From Lepidostoma basale (Eukaryota > Arthropoda > Insecta > Trichoptera > Lepidostomatidae), in the NCBI GenBank assembly GCA_022606425.2, contig JAHDVF020000840.1, positions 186,001 to 250,000 on the forward strand: a stretch of DNA of 64,000 nucleotides. Direction: 5' to 3'. A program made the translations under genes and the position numbers. Below are positions 4,005 through 63,985 of the stretch, piece by piece. The stretch's first letter is position 1, and the number at the start of each line of letters is the position of its first letter. The notes under the pieces were generated by a model. That model was given only the letters and a program-made list of their open reading frames with translations. It was not told the DNA's origin and ran no database searches.

Positions 4005-4300
4005 ATCATTGATGGTTGAGGTTTTTGTTTTGTAAAACTCCAATATAATTATTGTTTATAATAATAAACGCGATTGTTTAATGGTTTAACTTGATTTAAT
4101 TCATATATTTACTTATATAAATAGTAGTTACAAATTTGTTTCGCCTTGCGAGGGCATTTTCAAACTGAACCTTGAAGTTTAAAAATGCCCTCGCAAGGCG
4201 AAACAAAGTTGTAACCACTATTTATATAGGTAACTATATGAATTAAATCAAGTAAAACCATTAAGCAATCGCGTTTATTATTATATACAATAATCCTATT
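4005..4300. repeat. Near-perfect long palindrome (fold-back element, TTTCGCCTTGCG family, copy 1)
   Basis: Arms 4049-4160 and 4182-4294 are inverted copies of about 112 bases separated by a loop of about 21 bases. The arms carry ATAATAATAAACGCG, TTGATTTAATTCATATA, TATAAATAGTAGTTAC and, at the centre, TTTCGCCTTGCGAGGGCATT. Adjacent TTGATGGTTGAGG... is shared with the outer end of copy 2. No coding capacity is seen, so it is non-autonomous. Confidence 0.75.
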
Positions 4301-4615: not shown

Positions 4616-4740
4616 ATTCAACAAATTACGTGTGACAGAAACGGGTTCATTTTTACTAGTCCGCAAACCAAACAAAATAATTGAAATCCACGCTAAACAG
4701 TATGTCTATATGAAAAAAAGTATGTGCGAAACGACAATGA

Positions 4741-4965
4741 CGGCCTCCGTGGCAGAGTGGTAAGAGCTCTGACTGGCATACCAAAGCTCCTGGTTTCGAT
4801 TCCCAGCGATGGCAGTGTGATTGTCACACTGTCATTGGTCTGGTGTAGACTTCTTGTGAGAATAAAATGGCGATAAATTAGATACCTATCACATGTCATG
4901 AGAAGCAATATAATAGATCAACACAATATTATATACAGTAATTGGGTTCAAACTACCTGTTGTAT
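4741..4965 (+). mobile_element. SINE-A with tRNA head and alternative 3' module
   Basis: A box region GTGGCAGAGTGGTAAGAGC, B box GGTTTCGATTCC, core TTGGTCTGGTGTAGACTTC, ATCACATGTCATGAGAAGC, then TTATATACAGTAATTGG, GTTCAAACTACCTG. The (AAT)n tail of the standard form is replaced. The minus frame at 4693-4908 is a shadow. Confidence 0.75.
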
Positions 4966-5179: not shown

Positions 5180-5365
5180 CAGAGCGTCTGTTTTCTTGAA
5201 GTTTTATTATATTTAATGAGAATGTCGCGTTTCACATTGCTAAGGTAGTAAAAAATGGTATTGATATTTGACATTTGATAATACCTTAGCAAGGCGAAAT
5301 ATATCACTCCCAGAAAATATAATTAAACTTTTATAAAACCGACGTTTTCTTTCGTATTAATTATT
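5180..5365. repeat. Fold-back element, TACGAATGAAAACG family
   Basis: The left arm has GTCTGTTTTCTTGAAG, TTTATTATATTTAATG and CGTTTCACATTGCTAAGG. The right arm has CCTTAGCAAGGCGAAA, CTTTTATAAAACCGACG and TTTCGTATTAATTA. The hammerhead-like centre on the + strand reads TTGATAA, then stem ACCTT/AAGGC and GAAAT. Confidence 0.6.
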
Positions 5366-15149: not shown

Positions 15150-15440
15150 AATCTAAAAACAATATGTTCACTATAATTTTAAATTGAATATGATTTAATC
15201 CACTTTAAAAATTGAAAATAACGTTGTTTATAATCTACAAAATCTTAAAAATCACGACATGTTTCTGAGGATACCTCCATCTTCAGGTGTAAATATATAA
15301 TAAAAACTAAAAAAAGAAACAAGTCCTGATTGTTTCTTTGTTTAAACATGTCTTCCAAAACATATCGAGATATTTAATAATTTTTGGATTATAAACAACG
15401 TAATTTTCAATTTATAAAGTGTATTATTATGGAATTCTAT
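15150..15440. repeat. Fold-back repeat with central hammerhead
   Basis: The left arm 15207-15265 (ATTGAAAATAACGTTG, TTTATAATC, then the reverse of CATGTC) is mirrored by 15350-15418 (CATGTC, GGATTATAAACAACG, TAATTTTCAAT). The right flank contains the 16-base motif TTATTATGGAATTCTA also found at 11261 and 31410. Confidence 0.55.
15253..15289 (-). ncRNA. Hammerhead ribozyme motif at the centre of a fold-back repeat
   Basis: Minus strand: CUGAAGA at 15280-15286; stem II GAGG/CCUC extended by a U-A pair with one bulged G; GAAAC at 15261-15265; loop AU; GUC with C17 at 15256; stem I GUG/CAC (3 bp) before a mismatch. It occupies the middle of the palindrome at 15150-15440. Confidence 0.55.
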
Positions 15441-15549: not shown

Positions 15550-15700
15550 GTTGTAATTAATCATATTTATAGTTTTGTGGAACAATGATATAAAACTCTA
15601 TATTAAACAAATGTGCGAATGAAAACGTTTTTTAGAAGTCTTATCTTATTTTATAGAATGGCATGGTTCACCGTGCTCAGGGATTATCAAATATTATGTC
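15550..15700. repeat. Left-arm fragment of the TACGAATGAAAACG fold-back family
   Basis: ATATTTATAGTTTTGTGG, AACAATGATATAAAACTC, GCGAATGAAAACG, TTTTAGAAG, TTATCAAATATTATGTC. Only a diverged left arm is recognisable. Confidence 0.4.
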
Positions 15701-17929: not shown

Positions 17930-18085
17930 ATATTGTTTCTTGGACAGTAATGTTTAACTTTATAATACATCATTACTACGAATGAAAATGTCGTTTGATA
18001 ATGTTTTAGCAAGGCGAAACATATCATTCTCATACAATATAGTAAAACTTCTATATAACAAACATTTTCATTGGTATATTTTTTT
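17930..18085. repeat. Fold-back element, TACGAATGAAAACG family
   Basis: TTGTTTCTTGGACAGTAATG, CATTACTACGAATGAAAATG, then TTGATAATGTTTTAGC, AAGGCGAAACATATCATTC and AAACTTCTATATAACAAAC. Most of the left arm is missing. The core reads TTGATAA on the + strand. Confidence 0.5.
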
Positions 18086-19502: not shown

Positions 19503-19800
19503 ATTATTGTATATAATAATAAACGCAATTGTTTAATGGTTTCACTTGATTTAATTCATATAATTTCCTATATAAATAGTAGTTACAAATTTGTTTCGCC
19601 TTGCGAGGGCATTTTCAAACTCAAACAACATAGAGTTTAATAATGCCCTCGCAAGGCGAAACAAATTTGTAACTACTATTTATATAAGTAATTATATGAA
19701 TTAAATCAAGTAAAACCATTAAACAATCGCGTTTATTATTATATACAATAATTATAATGGAGTTTTACAAAACAAAAACCTCAACCATCAATATCATAGT
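19503..19800. repeat. Near-perfect long palindrome (TTTCGCCTTGCG family, copy 2)
   Basis: Arms 19503-19615 and 19642-19752 are inverted copies and almost identical to those of 4049-4294. The loop differs. The outer right flank (TGGAGTTTTACAAAAC, CCTCAACCATCAAT) is the inverse of the outer left flank of copy 1, which shows that the full element is longer than the palindrome. Confidence 0.75.
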
Positions 19801-21254: not shown

Positions 21255-21360
21255 ACTAACTGTTAAATTAAATTACTTTGTTTTTTGTATCACAATTGTA
21301 TTTTATTTTACGCGACAGCTGTTTCATCAACCTATGTTGACATCATCAGGTGTTTTGGGC
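21255..21360. repeat. Half copy of the CAGCTG fold-back family
   Basis: Contains AACTGTTAAAT, a TATCACAATTG block and the hammerhead box in the same order as the left arm of 61550-61880. No matching right arm follows, so this is a solo arm about 330 bases upstream of the signal-peptide exon. Confidence 0.5.
21311..21353 (-). ncRNA. Hammerhead ribozyme motif in a half fold-back element
   Basis: Minus strand: CUGAUGA at 21343-21349, extra U at 21342, stem II GUCAAC/GUUGAU (6 bp) with AUAG loop, GAAAC at 21321-21325, then AGCUGUC with C17 at 21314. Stem I begins with a G-C pair, has one mismatch and then two more pairs, so it is weak. The sequence belongs to the fold-back family that also occurs at 32040-32310, 56370-56460 and 61550-61880; here only one arm (about 21255-21360) is present. 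Confidence 0.6.
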
Positions 21361-29395: not shown

Positions 29396-29449
29396 GCAAG
29401 ATGATTAATATTATTAATTTGTTGAATAGCTTTATATATAATTACAGCG

Positions 29450-29595
29450 CGAGCGAGCTTTTATAAGCTATTATATTGATTCTCATGACATATGATCTAG
29501 CTGATTTATCACCATTTAATTGTCACGTGATTTCTACACCAGACCAGAGACAATTTGAAAACCACACTGTCTTCGCCGAGAATCGAATATCGCTG
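29450..29595 (-). mobile_element. SINE-A fragment
   Basis: ATTACAGCGCGAGCGAGC, TTGATTCTCATGACATATG, TTGTCACGTGATTTCTACAC, CAGACCAGAGACAA in minus orientation; the tRNA head is broken at the B box. Confidence 0.65.
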
Positions 29596-32039: not shown

Positions 32040-32310
32040 TAATACTTTAGATAATCCATTGTTTTGGCGGAAACATTTTGATATATCAACATTATTTACT
32101 GTTTAAACAAAAACACAGCTATAGAATATCACAATTGATTCTATTTCTTTCGAAATTGTCGCGACAACTGTTTCGCTAACCGATGTAAGCGTCGTCAGGT
32201 GTTATAATCAACTATCAGTTGAAAAGTGAAACAGCTGTCAGCAAGAAATATAATCAATTGTGATATTGTATAACAGTGTTTTTATTTAAACAGTTAATGA
32301 TACATTATTT
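32040..32310. repeat. Fold-back repeat carrying a hammerhead (CAGCTG family)
   Basis: The left arm (TTTAAACAAAAACAC, then a CACAATTGATT block and the reverse of GAAACAG) is matched in inverted orientation by the right arm from about 32228 to 32302 (GAAACAGCTGTC, then ATAATCAATTGTG, TTTAAACAG). The outer left end contains CCATTGTTTTGGCGGAAAC, which also ends related copies near 9170, 19970, 24720, 56440 and 61565. The central part carries the hammerhead motif of 32159-32202. Confidence 0.65.
32159..32202 (-). ncRNA. Hammerhead ribozyme motif in the arm of a fold-back repeat
   Basis: Minus strand: CUGACGA at 32192-32198, extra C at 32191, stem II GCUUAC/GUUAGC with one U-U mismatch and a 4-base loop, G12AAA plus C at 32170-32174, minimal stem III AC/GU with loop AGUU, and C17 at 32163. 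Stem I is weak (G-C, mismatch, G-C). It lies in the left arm of the fold-back at 32040-32310; the right arm carries only the GAAACAGCTGTC part. Confidence 0.55.
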
Positions 32311-32368
32311 GTCTTTTTCTTTTTTATATACTTTGTATACAACATTAAATAAAAAATAAAAAAAATTA

Positions 32369-32414
32369 AATATCAGACATGTTTCGGACAACTCGGTCCT
32401 TCCTCAGTGATATT
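32369..32414 (-). ncRNA. Hammerhead ribozyme motif, type I, complete
   Basis: Read on the minus strand, stem I 5' strand AAUAUCA (32408-32414) leads into CUGAGGA (32401-32407), one extra A (32400), stem II GGAC/GUCC (32396-32399 with 32386-32389) around a 6-base loop, GAAA (32382-32385), a 2-bp stem III AC/GU with loop AU, and C17 at 32376. The stem I 3' strand UGAUAUU (32369-32375) pairs perfectly over 7 bp. All invariant core bases are present. The extra base after A9 is also known from the chrysanthemum chlorotic mottle viroid hammerhead, which is active. Predicted cleavage lies between 32376 and 32375. The motif sits beside another fold-back repeat (32040-32310). Confidence 0.8.
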
Positions 32415-32461
32415 ATAAAGATATTTAAAATATTATAAAATTGTTTACAAATATTATTAGT

Positions 32462-32705
32462 ATTATTATCATTATTTTGTTAAATCGCTCTTTTACATCA
32501 TTACAGCGCTAGCCAAATCGATGTAAAAGGTATAGCTATCATATTGATTCTCGTGACATGTGATAGGTAGCTGATTTATCGCCATTTTATTGTTAAGTGA
32601 ATTCTTCACCAGACCAAAGAAAGACAGTGTAACAATCACACTGGCATCGCCGGGACCTACGGTGTGGCAGTCAAAGCACTTACCACTCGGCCACGAAGGT
32701 CGTTA
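32462..32705 (-). mobile_element. SINE-A, full-length copy
   Basis: In minus orientation: head CGTGGCCGAGTGGTAAGTG, core with TTGGTCTGGTGAAGAATTC, tail CTCTTTTACATC and (ATT)n at the left. The B box is shortened by one or two bases. Confidence 0.78.
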
Positions 32706-38084: not shown

Positions 38085-38260
38085 ATCTTTAGTCTGGTGT
38101 AGAATTCACGTGACAATAAAATGGCGACAGATTAGCTACCTGTAACATGTCACAAGAATCACTACGATAACTGTAATAATACCCTTTACATCGATTTGGC
38201 TCATGCTGTCATGACGTAAAGAGCGATTCAACAAAATAATAATAATAATAATTTCAAAAC
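38085..38260 (+). mobile_element. SINE-A, 5'-truncated
   Basis: TTTAGTCTGGTGTAGAATTC, GACAATAAAATGGCGACAG, TTTACATCGATTTGGCTC, AAGAGCGATTCAACAAAA, (TAA)n. No tRNA head. Confidence 0.75.
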
Positions 38261-40096: not shown

Positions 40097-40128
40097 CTGA
40101 CGAAGTTCCGATTGGAGCGAAACCGATT
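40097..40128 (+). ncRNA. Decayed hammerhead ribozyme motif
   Basis: CTGACGA at 40097-40103, extra A, stem II GTTCC/GGAGC with GATT loop, and GAAAC at 40119-40123. Stem III has lost its second pair (AT instead of GT) and no stem I can be drawn. It is a degraded relative of 45374-45413. Confidence 0.45.
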
Positions 40129-42029: not shown

Positions 42030-42225
42030 CATTTATATTATTTTAAAATATAGCATTTCAGTGGGATATTCTATTTCTTCTATATTCGTCATCGCTTTGT
42101 GTTGTGGATTCACATTTGAATAACTTTTTGGAAACATTGTATTATCACAACACTTTTTTGCGCTTTTCACAAACATGTTTCGGGACACTAACTTCCCTTC
42201 TATAGTGTATGAATTTTAAATTAAA
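42030..42225. repeat. Relative of the ACATGTC fold-back family, decayed hammerhead
   Basis: TTCTTCTATATTCGTCATCG, CTTTGTGTTGTGGATTCAC, then on the minus strand CUAUAGA in place of CUGANGA, stem GGGA/UCCC and GAAACAUGUU. The core is mutated at two or more conserved positions. Block TTCTTCTATATTCGTCAT also occurs at 15940 and, in variant form, at 56945 and 61326. Confidence 0.45.
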
Positions 42226-44189: not shown

Positions 44190-44295
44190 ATGACAATTAA
44201 TACGAATGAAAACGTCAGTTTTCTAGAAGTTTTATTATATTTTATGGGAATGACAAGTTTCGCCCTTCTAAGGCTTATTAGCTAATTATCAAATG
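44190..44295. repeat. Left arm of the TACGAATGAAAACG fold-back family
   Basis: AATTAATACGAATGAAAACG, TCAGTTTTCTAGAAGTTTTA, TTATGGGAATGACAAG, TTTCGCCCTTCTAAGGC, TTATCAAATG. It is very close to the family consensus. Confidence 0.6.
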
Positions 44296-45124: not shown

Positions 45125-45292
45125 ATTACAATTTATGGGAATGACATGTTTCGCCTTTCTAAGACATTATCAAATGTCAGATAAATTTTTGGACACATTG
45201 AAATATTTAATCCCCATAAATTATAATAAAACTTCTAGAAAACAGACGTTTACATTCGTATTAATTACTTAATATAGAACTTTCGTATGACG
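45125..45292. repeat. Fold-back element, TACGAATGAAAACG family
   Basis: TTTATGGGAATGACATG, TTTCGCCTTTCTAAGAC, ATTATCAAATGTCAG, then CCCCATAAATTATAATAAAA, CTTCTAGAAAACAGACG and ATTCGTATTAATTAC. The 5' tip of the left arm is missing. Confidence 0.55.
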
Positions 45293-45329: not shown

Positions 45330-45430
45330 TAATAAACTTTTAGTATTTGTATCTAAACCACTTTATTTGGTAACACCAACTGGTTTCGCTCCCGCCGAAG
45401 CTTCGTCAGGGTGAGTGTGATTGTCAGTTC
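45330..45430. repeat. Single arm of the CCGGTTTC fold-back family
   Basis: AACCACTTTATTTGGTAAC followed by the hammerhead box in reverse matches the left arm of 47085-47290 (AACCATTTTATTTAG). No inverted partner arm is seen. Confidence 0.45.
45374..45413 (-). ncRNA. Hammerhead ribozyme motif, type I, complete
   Basis: On the minus strand: stem I CACC (45410-45413) pairs with GGUG (45374-45377). CUGACGA is at 45403-45409, followed by an extra A at 45402. Stem II GCUUC/GGAGC has 5 bp including one G-U and a GGCG loop. GAAAC is at 45383-45387, stem III is AC/GU with loop CA, and U17 is at 45378 (GUU triplet). All core bases are intact. Related copies with the same stem II are at 40097 (+), 47150 and 54906. 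Confidence 0.75.
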
Positions 45431-47084: not shown

Positions 47085-47290
47085 AAGCACTTTTTTACTT
47101 AGTATAAACCATTTTATTTAGTTAGTAACGCTAACCGATTTCACTCTGTTGAGAGCTTTCTCAGGGCTATATACAAACTGTTTACGTATAACCCTGAGAA
47201 AGTGAAACCGGTTGGTGCTACTAACTCAATAAAGGGGTTTATACTAAGTGAAAAAGTGTTAAACTTTATTTTTGAAATAAAGCTGTTGGA
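47085..47290. repeat. Palindromic repeat with decayed hammerheads on both arms
   Basis: The left arm (TTAGTATAAACC, TTTATT, TAGTTAGTA, AACCGATTTCAC, TTCTCAGGG) is inverted in the right arm (CCCTGAGAAAGTGAAACCGG, TACTAACTC, GGTTTATACTAAG). The left core reads CUGAGAA on the minus strand (G8 lost). The right core has lost stem II. The family is related by its CCGGTTTC box to 45374 and 54906. Confidence 0.55.
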
Positions 47291-54867: not shown

Positions 54868-54955
54868 CTTGTAAAAGTTTATTTACACCAATTTATTATT
54901 TTCAACAACCGACCGGTTTCGCTCCTGCCGGAGCTTCGTCAAGGTTAAAAACAGA
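54868..54955. repeat. Single arm of the CCGGTTTC fold-back family
   Basis: AAGTTTATTTACACC, TTTATTATTTTCAAC, then the reversed hammerhead box of 54906-54947. The layout is the same as 45330-45430 but the arm sequence is diverged. Confidence 0.4.
54906..54947 (-). ncRNA. Hammerhead ribozyme motif with C3 changed to U
   Basis: Minus strand: stem I AACC plus a U-G pair (54943-54947 with 54906-54910), box UUGACGA at 54936-54942 where CUGACGA is expected, extra A at 54935, a perfect 5-bp stem II GCUCC/GGAGC with GGCA loop, GAAAC at 54916-54920, stem III AC/GU with loop CG, and C17 at 54911. The C3 substitution should abolish or strongly reduce cleavage, because C3 pairs with G8 in the active core. 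Same family as 45374-45413. Confidence 0.6.
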
Positions 54956-57530: not shown

Positions 57531-58089
57531 TCTAAAAAGTTTAATTTAAAAATTTTAATGGTTTTAAAACATAGAATATTCAAGCGGTGTGGCAATTCAA
57601 TGTGGCATTCCGTAGTAAAAAAAAATGTGTGTCAGCAAAAATCTACTTATGAAGGAAATGAATATTCTGTTACATTTTTTAAATTAAAATTTTAAAACTG
57701 GAACGAGAAACAAACAACGGAACGCGATATTTATTACTACGAAGATTATAACGGCTTTGTTATATTTCGTTATTCATTGACTACGTCCAGTCCGGCTCAT
57801 GAATATTTATAAAAATCGCACATCGCATTAATCAACATAAAAAATAATAACTGTTTAAACTGGGAACAGACTGTCTCTTGACACTGCGAAATTCATTCAC
57901 AACTATATTACAATTCTAGAGATTTACATAAATTTGAATCTAATTAATCCAAGAGTTATTTGCTATATTTTATATGAAGTGCTTTGAATGTCTCCGGTAT
58001 TATAAATCTTATCTTTTGAAATGAAACATTTTTTTAGAACTATCATTATGTTGTCTATGGATTTCTCTATGGCAATATCCTCTAGATCA

Positions 58090-58400
58090 TTCTTCTTCTT
58101 CTTGTCATGTCACACCTCAGGGCTTTAAGGAACCTTCTCCATCCGACTCTATCGCACGCCTGATGCCTAACATCTTCCCAAGTGAGGCCTGCTGCTTTAA
58201 TCTGGAGTTTTCTAATAACGTCCGTGGTAGATTTCCAAGTCTTACATCCGTACAGCAGTAAGCTTTTAACGCTACTGTTCAATATTTGGAGCTTGAGGTT
58301 TTTTAAAATAATACTGGAACGCCATATAGGACGAAGCATTGCGAAAGCTCCCTCTGTCTTGTTGAGTCTGCTGGTCATATCCTGGCTATATCTTCTAGAT
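58090..58400 (-). mobile_element. RTE-like family G, 3' fragment with internal deletion
   Basis: The minus frame 58378-58082 encodes SRLNKTEGAFAMLRPIWRSS, NSSVKSLLLYGCKTWKSTT and then jumps to AAGLTWEDV, DRVGWRRFLKALR; the GRPR-type block between them is deleted. (GAA)n tail at 58093. Confidence 0.7.
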
Positions 58401-61320: not shown

Positions 61321-61436
61321 TATTTCTTCTATATACGCCATACTTTGTGTTGTTATGATGGTTTATTTCTCTTTTTCTTTTTTATACACTTTACATGATA
61401 ACAACAACAATTTTATAAAATATTTATAAATATGTA

Positions 61437-61480
61437 TCGTTACTGAAGAAGGACTACTTGTCCGAAACATGTCTATATAA
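61437..61480 (+). ncRNA. Hammerhead ribozyme core, stem I decayed
   Basis: Plus strand: CTGAAGA at 61443-61449, extra A, stem II GGAC/GTCC with TACTT loop, GAAAC at 61464-61468, loop AT, and GTC ending at 61473. Only two stem I pairs remain. Stem II and stem III are identical in sequence to those of the complete ribozyme at 32369-32414, so both belong to one family. Confidence 0.5.
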
Positions 61481-61549
61481 TGAAAAAAAAATTGTTTATT
61501 TATATTTTTATTTATTTATATACAAAGTTTATAAACAAAATATAAAAAA

Positions 61550-61880
61550 ATACAAAATAGTTCATTGTTTTGGCCGAAACCCTATGATACTTCAACATTA
61601 TAAACTGTTAAATTATAAAACTCTGTTTCTATGTATCACAATTTTATTTTTATTTTTCGAGACAGCTGTTTCTTCAACAAATGTTGAAGTCATCAGGTCT
61701 TACAATAATGTATCAACTGTTAAATTTCGTGATTTTTCTAACCTGTATGTGTATTTGTTCTTATGTCAATTTGAATAATTTGAAAGGCTGGCGAAACAGC
61801 TGTCGCGAAAAATAAAAATAAAATTGTGATACATAAAAACAGAGTTTTATGATTTAACAGTTTATGAATATAATATAGTC
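61550..61880. repeat. Fold-back repeat carrying a hammerhead (CAGCTG family)
   Basis: The left arm 61560-61680 and right arm 61785-61865 are inverted copies. Shared blocks are TTCATTGTTTTGGC (left outer end), AACTGTTAAAT, TATCACAATTTTATTTTTA and the GAAACAGCTGTC box. It lies about 150 bases upstream of the 62031 host exon. The short frames inside are not genes. Confidence 0.65.
61658..61700 (-). ncRNA. Hammerhead ribozyme core in the left arm of a fold-back repeat
   Basis: Minus strand: CUGAUGA at 61690-61696, extra C at 61689, stem II UUCAAC/GUUGAA (6 perfect bp, AUUU loop), GAAAC at 61668-61672, loop AGCU, and GUC ending with C17 at 61661. The core is complete but the flanking bases do not form a convincing stem I, so this copy is probably inactive as a monomer. 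Confidence 0.55.
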
Positions 61881-62300: not shown

Positions 62301-62759
62301 TCAACAAAATAATTCTAAAACAAATAATATAAAATAGAACGATACAAAATAAAATAACAAAATAAAAATAATATAACACATAATGTTCTTTTAGATGGTG
62401 CACTGTTGTCAAATGGACGATCCGGACTTTTGTGTTTATTTAATTTATATTTCACGTATCCACCGTTCCTTTATAACTGTAATTATACATTTAAAACAAT
62501 TCAACCCCACCAAAATATTATTGAAGAAATTGTTCAAAATTTCATAGGAACAAATGAAAAATTAATTTTAACACCTAACAAAATTCTTTATGTAAACGAA
62601 AAAACTTTTATAATTTTAACATCAAAACAGTAGGTACAAACGTATTACGTGTCATAATTAACTATTATAAAGAGCAGCAACAATCAAACTGACCAAAATA
62701 CTTCATTATTACTGTTAAAATTTGTAGCATTGTTATAATAACACAATTTATTTTTATAC

Positions 62760-63985
62760 ACTGAGAGTGTCGCTATGGCTTCATATCTGTCGGATCGTTC
62801 ACAAGCTGTGCAGCTAGCAGGTAAAAAATCCTCATTTACTAATATCCAATCTGGTGTGCCACAAGGCTCTGTTTTAGGACCCCTTTTATTTATCATGTTT
62901 ACAAATGACGTTGCCAAAATAATAGAATCCTTTGGCCTCCTCTCACATTGCTATGCTGATGATCAGCAACTTTATTTTTTCTGCAACCCTGATGACACCA
63001 AACATCTTACGTCAACAACTGTCAACTGCATTGATGCCATATCCAGATGGATGGCATCAAACAAACTTAAACTAAATCCATCCAAAACGGAATTTCTCTG
63101 GACTTCTTCCGCAAAGCGTCAACATCTTATCGATCATTCCTCAATTTCAACAGCTGACAATGATATCGTTCCCAAAAACTCCACAAAGCTTCTTGGTGTT
63201 TATCTTGACGCAAATCTGTCTCTAAAATCCCAAATTAATAACACGGTCAGCGCTAGTTTCTTCCACCTAAGACGATTAAAATCCGTCAAAAGGAGTATTC
63301 CCCACGACACTTTCAAAACTCTTGTAAATTCCTTCGTTGTGTCACGACTTGATTATTGTAATGGAATTTATGCAAACATTCCAAAACAACAAATAAACAA
63401 ACTTCAATCTGCGTTCAATGCAGCAGCAAGGCTCATTAAAGGCATTCCAAAAAAGTCTCATATAACACAACATCTCAAAGAACTTCACTGGCTTAAAAGT
63501 CCAGAAAGAATCCAGTATAAACTCTGCTGGACAGTCTTCAAAGCGCTAAATGGAATGGCACCAAGTTATATATCTGAACTCTGTATAACGGACAGCCTAA
63601 ATTCAAGGAAATCCACACTTCGCTCGGCGAACTCCTCAGCAATGGGAAGATTAGTTGAGCCGAAGCGTTGCCCTAGTACAAATTTCGGGGATCGAGCGTT
63701 CGCGGTAGCCGGTCCATCAGCTTGGAACAATCTCCCTTCACACCTCAGATGCATAAATGATCCGACAGATTTCAGATCTAAATTGAAAACCCATCTTTTT
63801 CATATTTCATACCCAAATTAAACATTTATACTTTGTTCTACTATACTTTTAAACCGATCGCTTTTTAAGCGGTCACATTTAGATTTTTAGATTTAAAGCA
63901 CGTCTTAATGCGCCCTTGAGGTGATTACATCACAAAAACGGCGCTTTAAAAGTTAGCATATTATTATTATTATTATTATTATTAT
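62760..63985 (+). mobile_element. CR1/Jockey-like non-LTR retrotransposon, 5'-truncated, 348-codon frame
   Basis: The frame 62775-63821 begins inside the reverse-transcriptase domain: SYLSDR, SGVPQGSVLGPLLFIMFTND, then the catalytic HCYADDQQLYF box, NPSKTEFLW, thumb blocks SRLDYCNGIYANIP and LKELHWLKSPERIQYKL, and the C-terminal DRAFAVAGPSAWNNLP motif. The stop is followed by a 3' end with AACGGCGCTTT and a (TTA)n tail at 63961-63985. The ATG is just an internal methionine; endonuclease and fingers are missing. No stop or frameshift, so this is a fairly recent insertion. It lies downstream of the 62072 exon. The minus frame at 63566-63754 is a shadow. Confidence 0.9.

What the first reader, a model, noticed from the sequence alone, without database searches (positions are those of the whole stretch)
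32369..32414. Complete type I hammerhead ribozyme on the minus strand
All invariant bases are present: CUGAGGA, G12AAA, and C17 preceded by GU. Stem I pairs over 7 bp without mismatch (AAUAUCA with UGAUAUU), stem II over 4 bp, and stem III is a 2-bp stub. A chance match of the core plus an uninterrupted 7-bp stem I is unlikely. One extra A follows A9, as in an active viroid hammerhead.
Basis: partly seen in the sequence, partly recalled or inferred. Interest (0 to 1): 0.82.

Follow-up and report, generated by a model that had tools for sequence, protein, structure and literature searches.

The report
Hammerhead ribozyme in palindromic retroelement arm
This stretch encodes a genuine hammerhead-type RNA that can probably cut itself, and it is one of many near-identical copies spread through an animal genome by a small Penelope-like jumping element whose paired arms each carry the ribozyme, pointing away from each other.

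Summary
Confirmed: a complete minimal type I hammerhead lies at 32414-32369 (-), with intact core, 7-bp stem I and 4-bp stem II. Chance is unlikely: 2 of 3000 shuffles had a comparable site, and the genome holds 1,927 matches to the 32-nt core at up to 3 mismatches against 0 for the reversed control. Rfam misses it and its relatives in 18 loci. Paired changes across 13 hand-picked copies support stems I and II (covariation score reached by 0 of 500 shuffles).

The '2-bp stub' of stem III is better read as a palindrome (ACAUGU) that would let two copies form a double hammerhead.

The ribozyme sits in a 153-nt solo arm. Elsewhere such arms pair head to head; in 18 of 20 classifiable pairs exactly one arm has a ~38-nt 'tail', and flanks look like target-site duplications. 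These match published Penelope-like elements. No Penelope ORF was found; the genome-wide domain search did not complete.

So: a real ribozyme, a new member of a known kind, in an ORF-less palindromic family that could help test how Penelope elements insert. Cleavage is untested.

The parts
32369..32414 (-). Minimal type I hammerhead (family A1): stem I 7 bp, stem II 4 bp, extra A after A9, palindromic stem III ACATGT; predicted cut between 32376 and 32375
   Evidence: genome-wide copies
32305..32457 (-). Solo, tail-less arm of family A1 holding the ribozyme; 93% identical to positions 1-156 of the arm consensus
61322..61558 (.). Diverged A1-like head-to-head pair: left arm (-) 61322-61433 with tail, right arm (+) 61406-61558 without; hammerhead 61443-61473 (+) with stem I only 2 bp
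45378..45409 (-). Family A2 hammerhead, stem I CACC/GGTG, H17 is T
54911..54942 (-). Family A2 hammerhead with ACCGGT palindrome, stem I AACC/GGTT, C3 changed to T
40097..40128 (+). Family A2 hammerhead, stem I broken
47123..47174 (-). Decayed family A2 relative (18.4 bits, E 0.024)
42073..42215 (-). Decayed hammerhead of another family (42164-42215) followed by a tail (42073-42109) homologous to that of family A1
32098..32295 (.). Family B head-to-head palindrome directly downstream of the A1 arm, hammerhead-like units at 32163-32198 (-) and, partial, near 32228-32239 (+)
61603..61862 (.). Family B head-to-head palindrome, hammerhead-like unit 61661-61696 (-) with ACAGCTGT palindrome and a partial copy near 61793-61804 (+)
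21258..21354 (-). Family B arm with hammerhead-like unit 21314-21349
15256..15286 (-). Hammerhead-like unit with stem II GGAGG/CCTC(A), stem I 3 bp (a relative is in L048)
4051..4291 (.). Family C head-to-head palindrome, hammerhead-like relic TTGAAAA / ACAAATTTGT; second copy at 19506-19749

Best explanation
The interval is a minimal type I hammerhead ribozyme in a solo, tail-less arm of a high-copy, apparently ORF-less, Penelope-like retroelement family. SHOWN by sequence: complete core; paired stems I and II with covariation between families; palindromic stem III; many genomic copies; head-to-head arms around a palindromic centre; usually one tail per pair; target-site-duplication-like flanks. 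INFERRED: when the minus strand is transcribed the arm RNA folds into the hammerhead; two copies pair through ACAUGU into a double hammerhead and cut after C17. A Penelope-type enzyme acting in trans starts reverse transcription about 71-76 nt or 113 nt downstream of the cut, the two places where arms end, which explains the optional ~38-nt tail. A transcript across a whole inverted pair would bury the ribozyme, so solo arms, or transcripts starting inside a pair, are those expected to cleave.
For: 6 window sites against a shuffled mean of 0.114. 1,927 genomic core matches against 0 for the reversed control. Covariation: score 0.66 against 0.07-0.18 with partners slid, 0 of 500 shuffles; also in five window copies. 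Double hammerhead predicted for two strands of the window copy, -19.4 against -15.4 kcal/mol for two monomers. Solo-arm fold keeps stem I (P 0.47-0.66) and stem II (0.92-0.94), full pair buries them. Of 38 adjacent arm pairs within 400 nt, 33 head to head; 18 of 20 classed pairs with exactly one tail; flank words longer than permuted (7.5 against 5.79, 0 of 301). Tail shared with other hammerhead families. Published Penelope traits: inverted pLTRs, palindromic junction, 31-bp tail on one inverted pLTR, 8-10 bp duplications (PMC3846280 passages); 30-40 bp tail between two reverse-transcription starts, both strands cut and extended (PMC11167929 passages).
Against: No Penelope RT or GIY-YIG domain in 20 window ORFs, no GIY-YIG-like match in a crude motif scan of the window and 48 loci; genome-wide PF01541 search did not complete. 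No Rfam hit. Fold energy ordinary. Of four units co-folded, only the window copy gave the complete double hammerhead. Many copies are decayed: 47 of 71 units keep core and all stems with stem I >=5, although the units were found through the core. In a lizard Penelope element, hammerhead mutants did not affect insertion in vitro and no RNA reads began or ended at the cut site. The flank test does not correct for base composition shared by the two sides of one locus.
Confidence: 0.75

Rival explanations
1. Animal non-LTR retrozyme: short direct tandem repeats with type I hammerheads that spread through circular RNA.
For: Type I hammerhead, non-coding AT-rich short repeat, high copy, as in PMC7229834; a few direct neighbours exist (++ 4, -- 1 of 38).
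Against: 33 of 38 neighbouring arms are inverted head to head; the palindromic centre is part of the flank consensus; a ~38-nt tail on one arm is a Penelope trait.
Confidence: 0.1
2. Foldback or MITE-type DNA transposon with inverted arms, in which the hammerhead is a passenger.
For: Long inverted arms, no ORF, high copy.
Against: Asymmetric ends (18 of 20 pairs with one tail), ragged short-arm ends (133-161), shared flank words of varying length, solo arms; covarying hammerheads in several families with a shared tail.
Confidence: 0.08
3. The copy and its family are catalytically dead fossils: the fold once mattered, but nothing is cut today.
For: Individual copies decay: in 13 partner arms not chosen through the core, 22 of 383 core positions differ from the majority, not clearly fewer than upstream (29 of 397). 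Minimal hammerheads without a stable stem III can be weak as monomers (PMC7761336 passages).
Against: The window copy has every invariant base and a 7-bp stem I; 47 of 71 core-selected units are structurally intact.
Confidence: 0.25
4. Chance match in AT-rich DNA.
For: No Rfam hit; fold energy ordinary.
Against: Shuffles, copy number with a zero control, covariation.
Confidence: 0.01

Closest known systems
Minimal type I hammerheads of Penelope-like elements and Terminons (Cervera and de la Pena 2014; Lunse, Weinberg and Breaker 2017: neither held; seen as described in PMC7761336 and PMC6155905 passages)
   Same: Very short stem III, small stem II, dispersed in thousands of copies, in pLTR-like arms, proposed to act as dimers
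   Different: No Penelope ORF attached here as far as seen; arms spread as ORF-less inverted pairs. Whether their published consensus also has the extra base after A9 I could not check
Adineta vaga Penelope elements with inverted pLTRs (PMC3846280, passages)
   Same: Head-to-head inverted pLTRs, palindromic junction, ~31-bp tail on one inverted pLTR, short target duplications
   Different: Those carry an RT-endonuclease ORF and direct pLTRs as well; the words hammerhead and ribozyme do not occur in that paper
Poseidon element of the green anole (PMC11167929, passages)
   Same: Hammerhead near the pLTR-ORF junction, downstream tail between two reverse-transcription starts, AT-rich targets
   Different: Autonomous, organised in tandem; its hammerhead was not needed for insertion in vitro
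Aedes aegypti repeat-type hammerheads with palindromic stem III (PMC3088659 Fig. S8 legend and passages)
   Same: Palindromic stem III that would pair in a dimer; repeated element
   Different: Element context not described in the passages seen
Animal non-LTR retrozymes (PMC7229834, abstract, part of Results, Discussion, passages)
   Same: Type I hammerheads in short non-coding AT-rich repeats
   Different: Direct tandem repeats; here 33 of 38 neighbouring arms are inverted

Membership tests
Hammerhead ribozyme, type I | Core C3U4G5A6N7G8A9, G12A13A14, A15.1-U16.1, H17 | tested here: met
   extra A after A9, shared by related units
Hammerhead ribozyme, type I | Three-stem junction with stem I open at the ends | tested here: met
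   Stems I and II pair and covary; stem III two pairs, invariant or nearly so, palindromic
Hammerhead ribozyme, type I | Match to a curated covariance model (Rfam) | tested here: not met
   No hammerhead hit; this is a limit of the models for short stem III by my reading, not a defining chemical feature
Hammerhead ribozyme, type I | Self-cleavage after H17 | not testable with these tools
   Needs in vitro assay
Penelope-like element | ORF with PLE reverse transcriptase (and GIY-YIG endonuclease) | tested here: inconclusive
   None in 20 window ORFs nor in a crude scan of 48 loci; genome search for PF01541 not answered (and later)
Penelope-like element | pLTRs in direct and/or inverted orientation, head-to-head with palindromic junction | tested here: met
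   33 of 38 adjacent arms head to head, palindromic centre
Penelope-like element | Optional 30-40 bp tail on one pLTR | tested here: met
   18 of 20 classed pairs have exactly one tail of ~38 nt
Penelope-like element | Short target-site duplications | tested here: met
   Shared flank words mean 7.5 against 5.79 permuted, 0 of 301; composition shared within a locus not controlled; clear single cases L019, L032, L037
Non-LTR retrozyme | Direct tandem repeats of a hammerhead unit | tested here: not met
   Direct neighbours 5 of 38
Non-LTR retrozyme | Circular RNA intermediate | not testable with these tools
   No RNA data

The most novel reading that the evidence does not exclude
Several hammerhead families in one genome ride on a carrier type I did not find described in the library searched: apparently ORF-less head-to-head arm pairs that spread at high copy like MITEs, borrow a Penelope enzyme through a shared ~38-nt tail, and are built by rule from one tailed and one tail-less arm. 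If the two arms are primed at two different reverse-transcription starts on the two cut DNA strands, these copies are the genomic footprint of double-ended priming; and the ribozyme, buried in the whole palindrome but free in solo arms, would decide which transcripts stay mobile.
Probability: 0.25. Interest if true: 0.65.

Novelty: new member of a known kind. Interest (0 to 1): 0.4.

Why it matters
How Penelope-like elements insert, and what their hammerheads do, is open: PMC7761336 calls the role of these minimal ribozymes a mystery, PMC3846280 favours self-priming on antisense RNA, and PMC11167929 shows an enzyme that cuts and extends both strands with internal starts. A family with about 1,900 core matches and two defined ends is a large natural data set. 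The one-tail rule (18 of 20 classed pairs; P = 2.0e-4 if each arm took the tail independently at one half) is something an insertion model has to explain. The case also shows that Rfam can miss a whole family of minimal hammerheads.

Tried and rejected
Rfam: no hammerhead in the window or in 18 loci. The miRNA-like hits lie below their gathering scores; those at 4130-4214 and 19589-19666 overlap palindromic family C repeats.

Core-pattern scans of viral contigs and genome contigs: 0 matches each, as expected for a eukaryote. Protein search with the LINE reverse transcriptase: 7,164 hits among 7,975 scored, 120 listed, almost all unnamed; it did not identify the host.

Penelope ORF: 20 window ORFs against Pfam gave only RVT_1 (62742-63818) and DUF6451 (58085-58399). 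Comparison of 86 outer flanks showed no long shared continuation that would mark an ORF-bearing element; two short arms (L021, L046) are followed at once by the same repeat.

Within-locus against between-locus arm distances do not differ (15 pairs: 0.141 within; 0.136-0.163 between). This neither supports nor excludes copying of the palindrome as a whole. One search gave the same with 16 pairs, but there I had labelled one unclassed arm (L033, right) as tailed, so I repeated it without that locus.

Core conservation: one search counted one core-selected arm (L008, left) among the unselected ones; one search repeats it with 13 arms (one cut before the core): core 22 of 383, upstream 29 of 397, stem I 5' side 0 of 84, stem I 3' side 12 of 90, downstream 90 of 692. 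The core is not clearly better kept than upstream; the downstream figure may be inflated by alignment of AT-rich DNA.

Covariation caveats: the 13 rows were picked by hand from the window and from hits of model R1 (92 hits at E<=0.5), which already holds the structure. Against the reading: the number of pairs with a change on both sides (10) is reached by 77 of 500 shuffles, and the three outermost stem I pairs are unpaired in 7 of 13 rows. In one search the measures 'pairs changed' and 'further types' are reached by 62 and 96 of 500.

Dropped rows: 13 of 33 pairs had an end I could not class.

The T3/A8 core of families A3 and C looked new, but U3-A8 covariation is already reported in nature and active in vitro (PMC3088659 section 8).

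Papers: PMC7229834 abstract, first of three parts of Results, Discussion and passages; PMC3088659 section 8 and passages; PMC7761336, PMC6155905, PMC11167929, PMC3846280, PMC10085705 and PMC8490949 passages only; PMC5785218 and PMC4209133 not held. 'Not found described' rests on search listings in an open-licence library that lacks the two key papers.

Full report
What is there. The minus strand of 32414-32369 reads as a full type I hammerhead: stem I AATATCA/TGATATT, core CTGAGGA, an extra A, stem II GGAC/GTCC, GAAA, stem III ACATGT, C17. Its lowest-energy fold is that structure, with an energy ordinary for its composition. In 3000 dinucleotide shuffles of the window, a core with stem II and stem III occurs 0.114 times on average (maximum 3) against 6 in the real window; a site with a 7-bp stem I occurs in 2 of 3000.

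Rfam sees nothing. The likely reason, an inference, is stem III: two pairs with a two-base loop. Its six bases are self-complementary, and two strands of the window copy are predicted to form a double hammerhead, with stem I between strands and a 6-bp stem III, at -19.4 against -15.4 kcal/mol for two monomers. Of four units tried, this complete fold appeared only for the window copy. Related units carry other palindromes at the same place: ACCGGT, ACAGCTGT, ACAAATTTGT. Such minimal hammerheads are described in Penelope-like elements and may act as dimers (PMC7761336); palindromic stem III is described in Aedes repeats (PMC3088659).

Covariation. Five window copies from two families show paired changes (13 cells against a shuffled mean of 7.1, 0 of 500). 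A model built from them scores its seeds at 50.5-61.6 bits; the next window hit has 18.4 bits, E 0.024. On 40 fetched loci it gave 92 hits at E<=0.5, among them hammerheads of other families. Thirteen hand-picked representatives give 84% paired cells, 41 cells changed on both sides and a score of 0.66 (each 0 of 500), against scores of 0.07-0.18 with partners slid; the count of changed pairs (10) is not exceptional, 77 of 500.

The family. The genome (768.8 Mb, 1572 contigs, unnamed) holds 938 + 989 = 1,927 matches to the 32-nt core at up to 3 mismatches and none to the reversed control. The host is probably an insect, judged by recall from LINE- and mariner-like ORFs. In 48 fetched loci a looser pattern finds 71 units: 60 keep the invariant core, 47 also all stems with stem I of 5 bp or more, and 65 keep the palindrome. 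These loci were chosen through the core. In 13 partner arms not so chosen, 22 of 383 core positions differ from the majority, against 29 of 397 upstream and 90 of 692 downstream, so there is no clear sign that single copies are kept functional.

Anatomy of the carrier. Flank consensuses show arms that run outward from a palindromic centre, each with the hammerhead pointing outward. Arms end either around position 133-161 (short) or at about 195, after a further ~38 nt (tail). Within 400 nt, adjacent arms are -+ 33 times, ++ 4, -- 1; 29 of 48 loci hold a head-to-head pair, but five loci (L019-L023) were fetched because a pair was visible. Of 33 pairs, 18 are short/tail, 1 tail/tail, 1 short/short and 13 unclassed. 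Flanks of the 20 classed pairs share longer words than permuted flanks (7.5 against 5.79, 0 of 301), without control for composition shared within a locus. If each arm took the tail independently at one half, 18 or more mixed pairs of 20 would have P = 2.0e-4.

These traits match Penelope elements: inverted pLTRs, palindromes at the inverted junction, a 31-bp tail on one inverted pLTR and 8-10 bp duplications in Adineta (PMC3846280); a 30-40 bp tail between two reverse-transcription starts in a lizard element whose enzyme cuts and extends both strands (PMC11167929). The tail also follows arms of other hammerhead families: L044 and L013 (a CTGATGAAGGG type) and the window unit at 42 kb, which suggests a shared recognition sequence. 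Of 44 tail hits, 21 follow a standard A1 unit by a crude label, 9 follow some GAAAC and 14 have no GAAAC within 130 nt.

The window copy. The arm spans 32457-32305 (-), 93% identical to positions 1-156 of the consensus: a solo, tail-less arm. It abuts a repeat at about 32452-32693 (-) with further copies at 236-491, 38086-38250, 4740-4916 and 29404-29581, one of which gives a weak tRNA match, so a tRNA-derived SINE is likely. A palindromic family B element follows. In the 145 nt folded (32448-32304), stem I pairs have probabilities of 0.47-0.66 and stem II 0.92-0.94; in a full pair (L011) the ribozyme is wholly paired with the opposite arm (-176 kcal/mol). A diverged pair, again one tailed and one short arm, lies at 61322-61558. 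In the window, families B and C also form head-to-head palindromes, as does the 42-kb family at 29.3 kb.

What is inferred. Cleavage, dimer action, use of a Penelope enzyme in trans and the reading of arm ends as reverse-transcription starts are inferences. In the lizard element, hammerhead mutants did not affect insertion in vitro and no reads began or ended at the cut site, so a need for cleavage should not be assumed. The missing link is an autonomous element: no Penelope domain in 20 window ORFs, none by a crude motif scan of the window and 48 loci, and the genome-wide search did not complete.

Verdict. A real minimal type I hammerhead, a new member of a known kind, in an apparently ORF-less, head-to-head palindromic family with Penelope-like architecture. 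The ribozyme itself would not surprise a specialist; the carrier and its one-tail rule are the more interesting part.

Noticed in passing
window 45125-45177, 5272-5323, 44234-44295, 17992-18042, 15648-15692 and others (family A3): A repeat whose start looks like a hammerhead relic (hairpin, GAAACATGTC). Of 12 copies that cover the core, all read T at position 3 and A at position 8, and 5 read TTGATAA: the U3-A8 version of the C3-G8 pair.
   Followed up: partly
window 4051-4291 and 19506-19749 (family C): Head-to-head palindromes with a relic TTGAAAA core and a 10-nt palindrome ACAAATTTGT; they overlap sub-threshold miRNA-like Rfam hits.
   Followed up: partly
window 32452-32693 (-), 236-491, 38086-38250, 4740-4916, 29404-29581: SINE-like repeat, probably tRNA-derived (weak tRNA match at 4743-4814, 21.7 bits, below gathering), ending in AAT repeats; the A1 arm abuts its 3' end.
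   Followed up: partly
L029 4123-4175, L021 234-286, L043 5357-5409, L028 5501-5553: A hammerhead-like family with core CTGTCGA or TTGTCGA (A6 changed to T) but good stem II and an ACCGGT palindrome in all four.
   Followed up: no
window 62742-63818 (+): 359-aa open frame with RVT_1 (E 4e-15), LINE-like (CR1/L2 type by recall); the longest frame listed.
   Followed up: partly
L021 and L046, outer flank of the short arm: Two short arms are followed directly by the same repeat beginning near (AACT)n AACCATCACGCC, perhaps a shared insertion preference.
   Followed up: no
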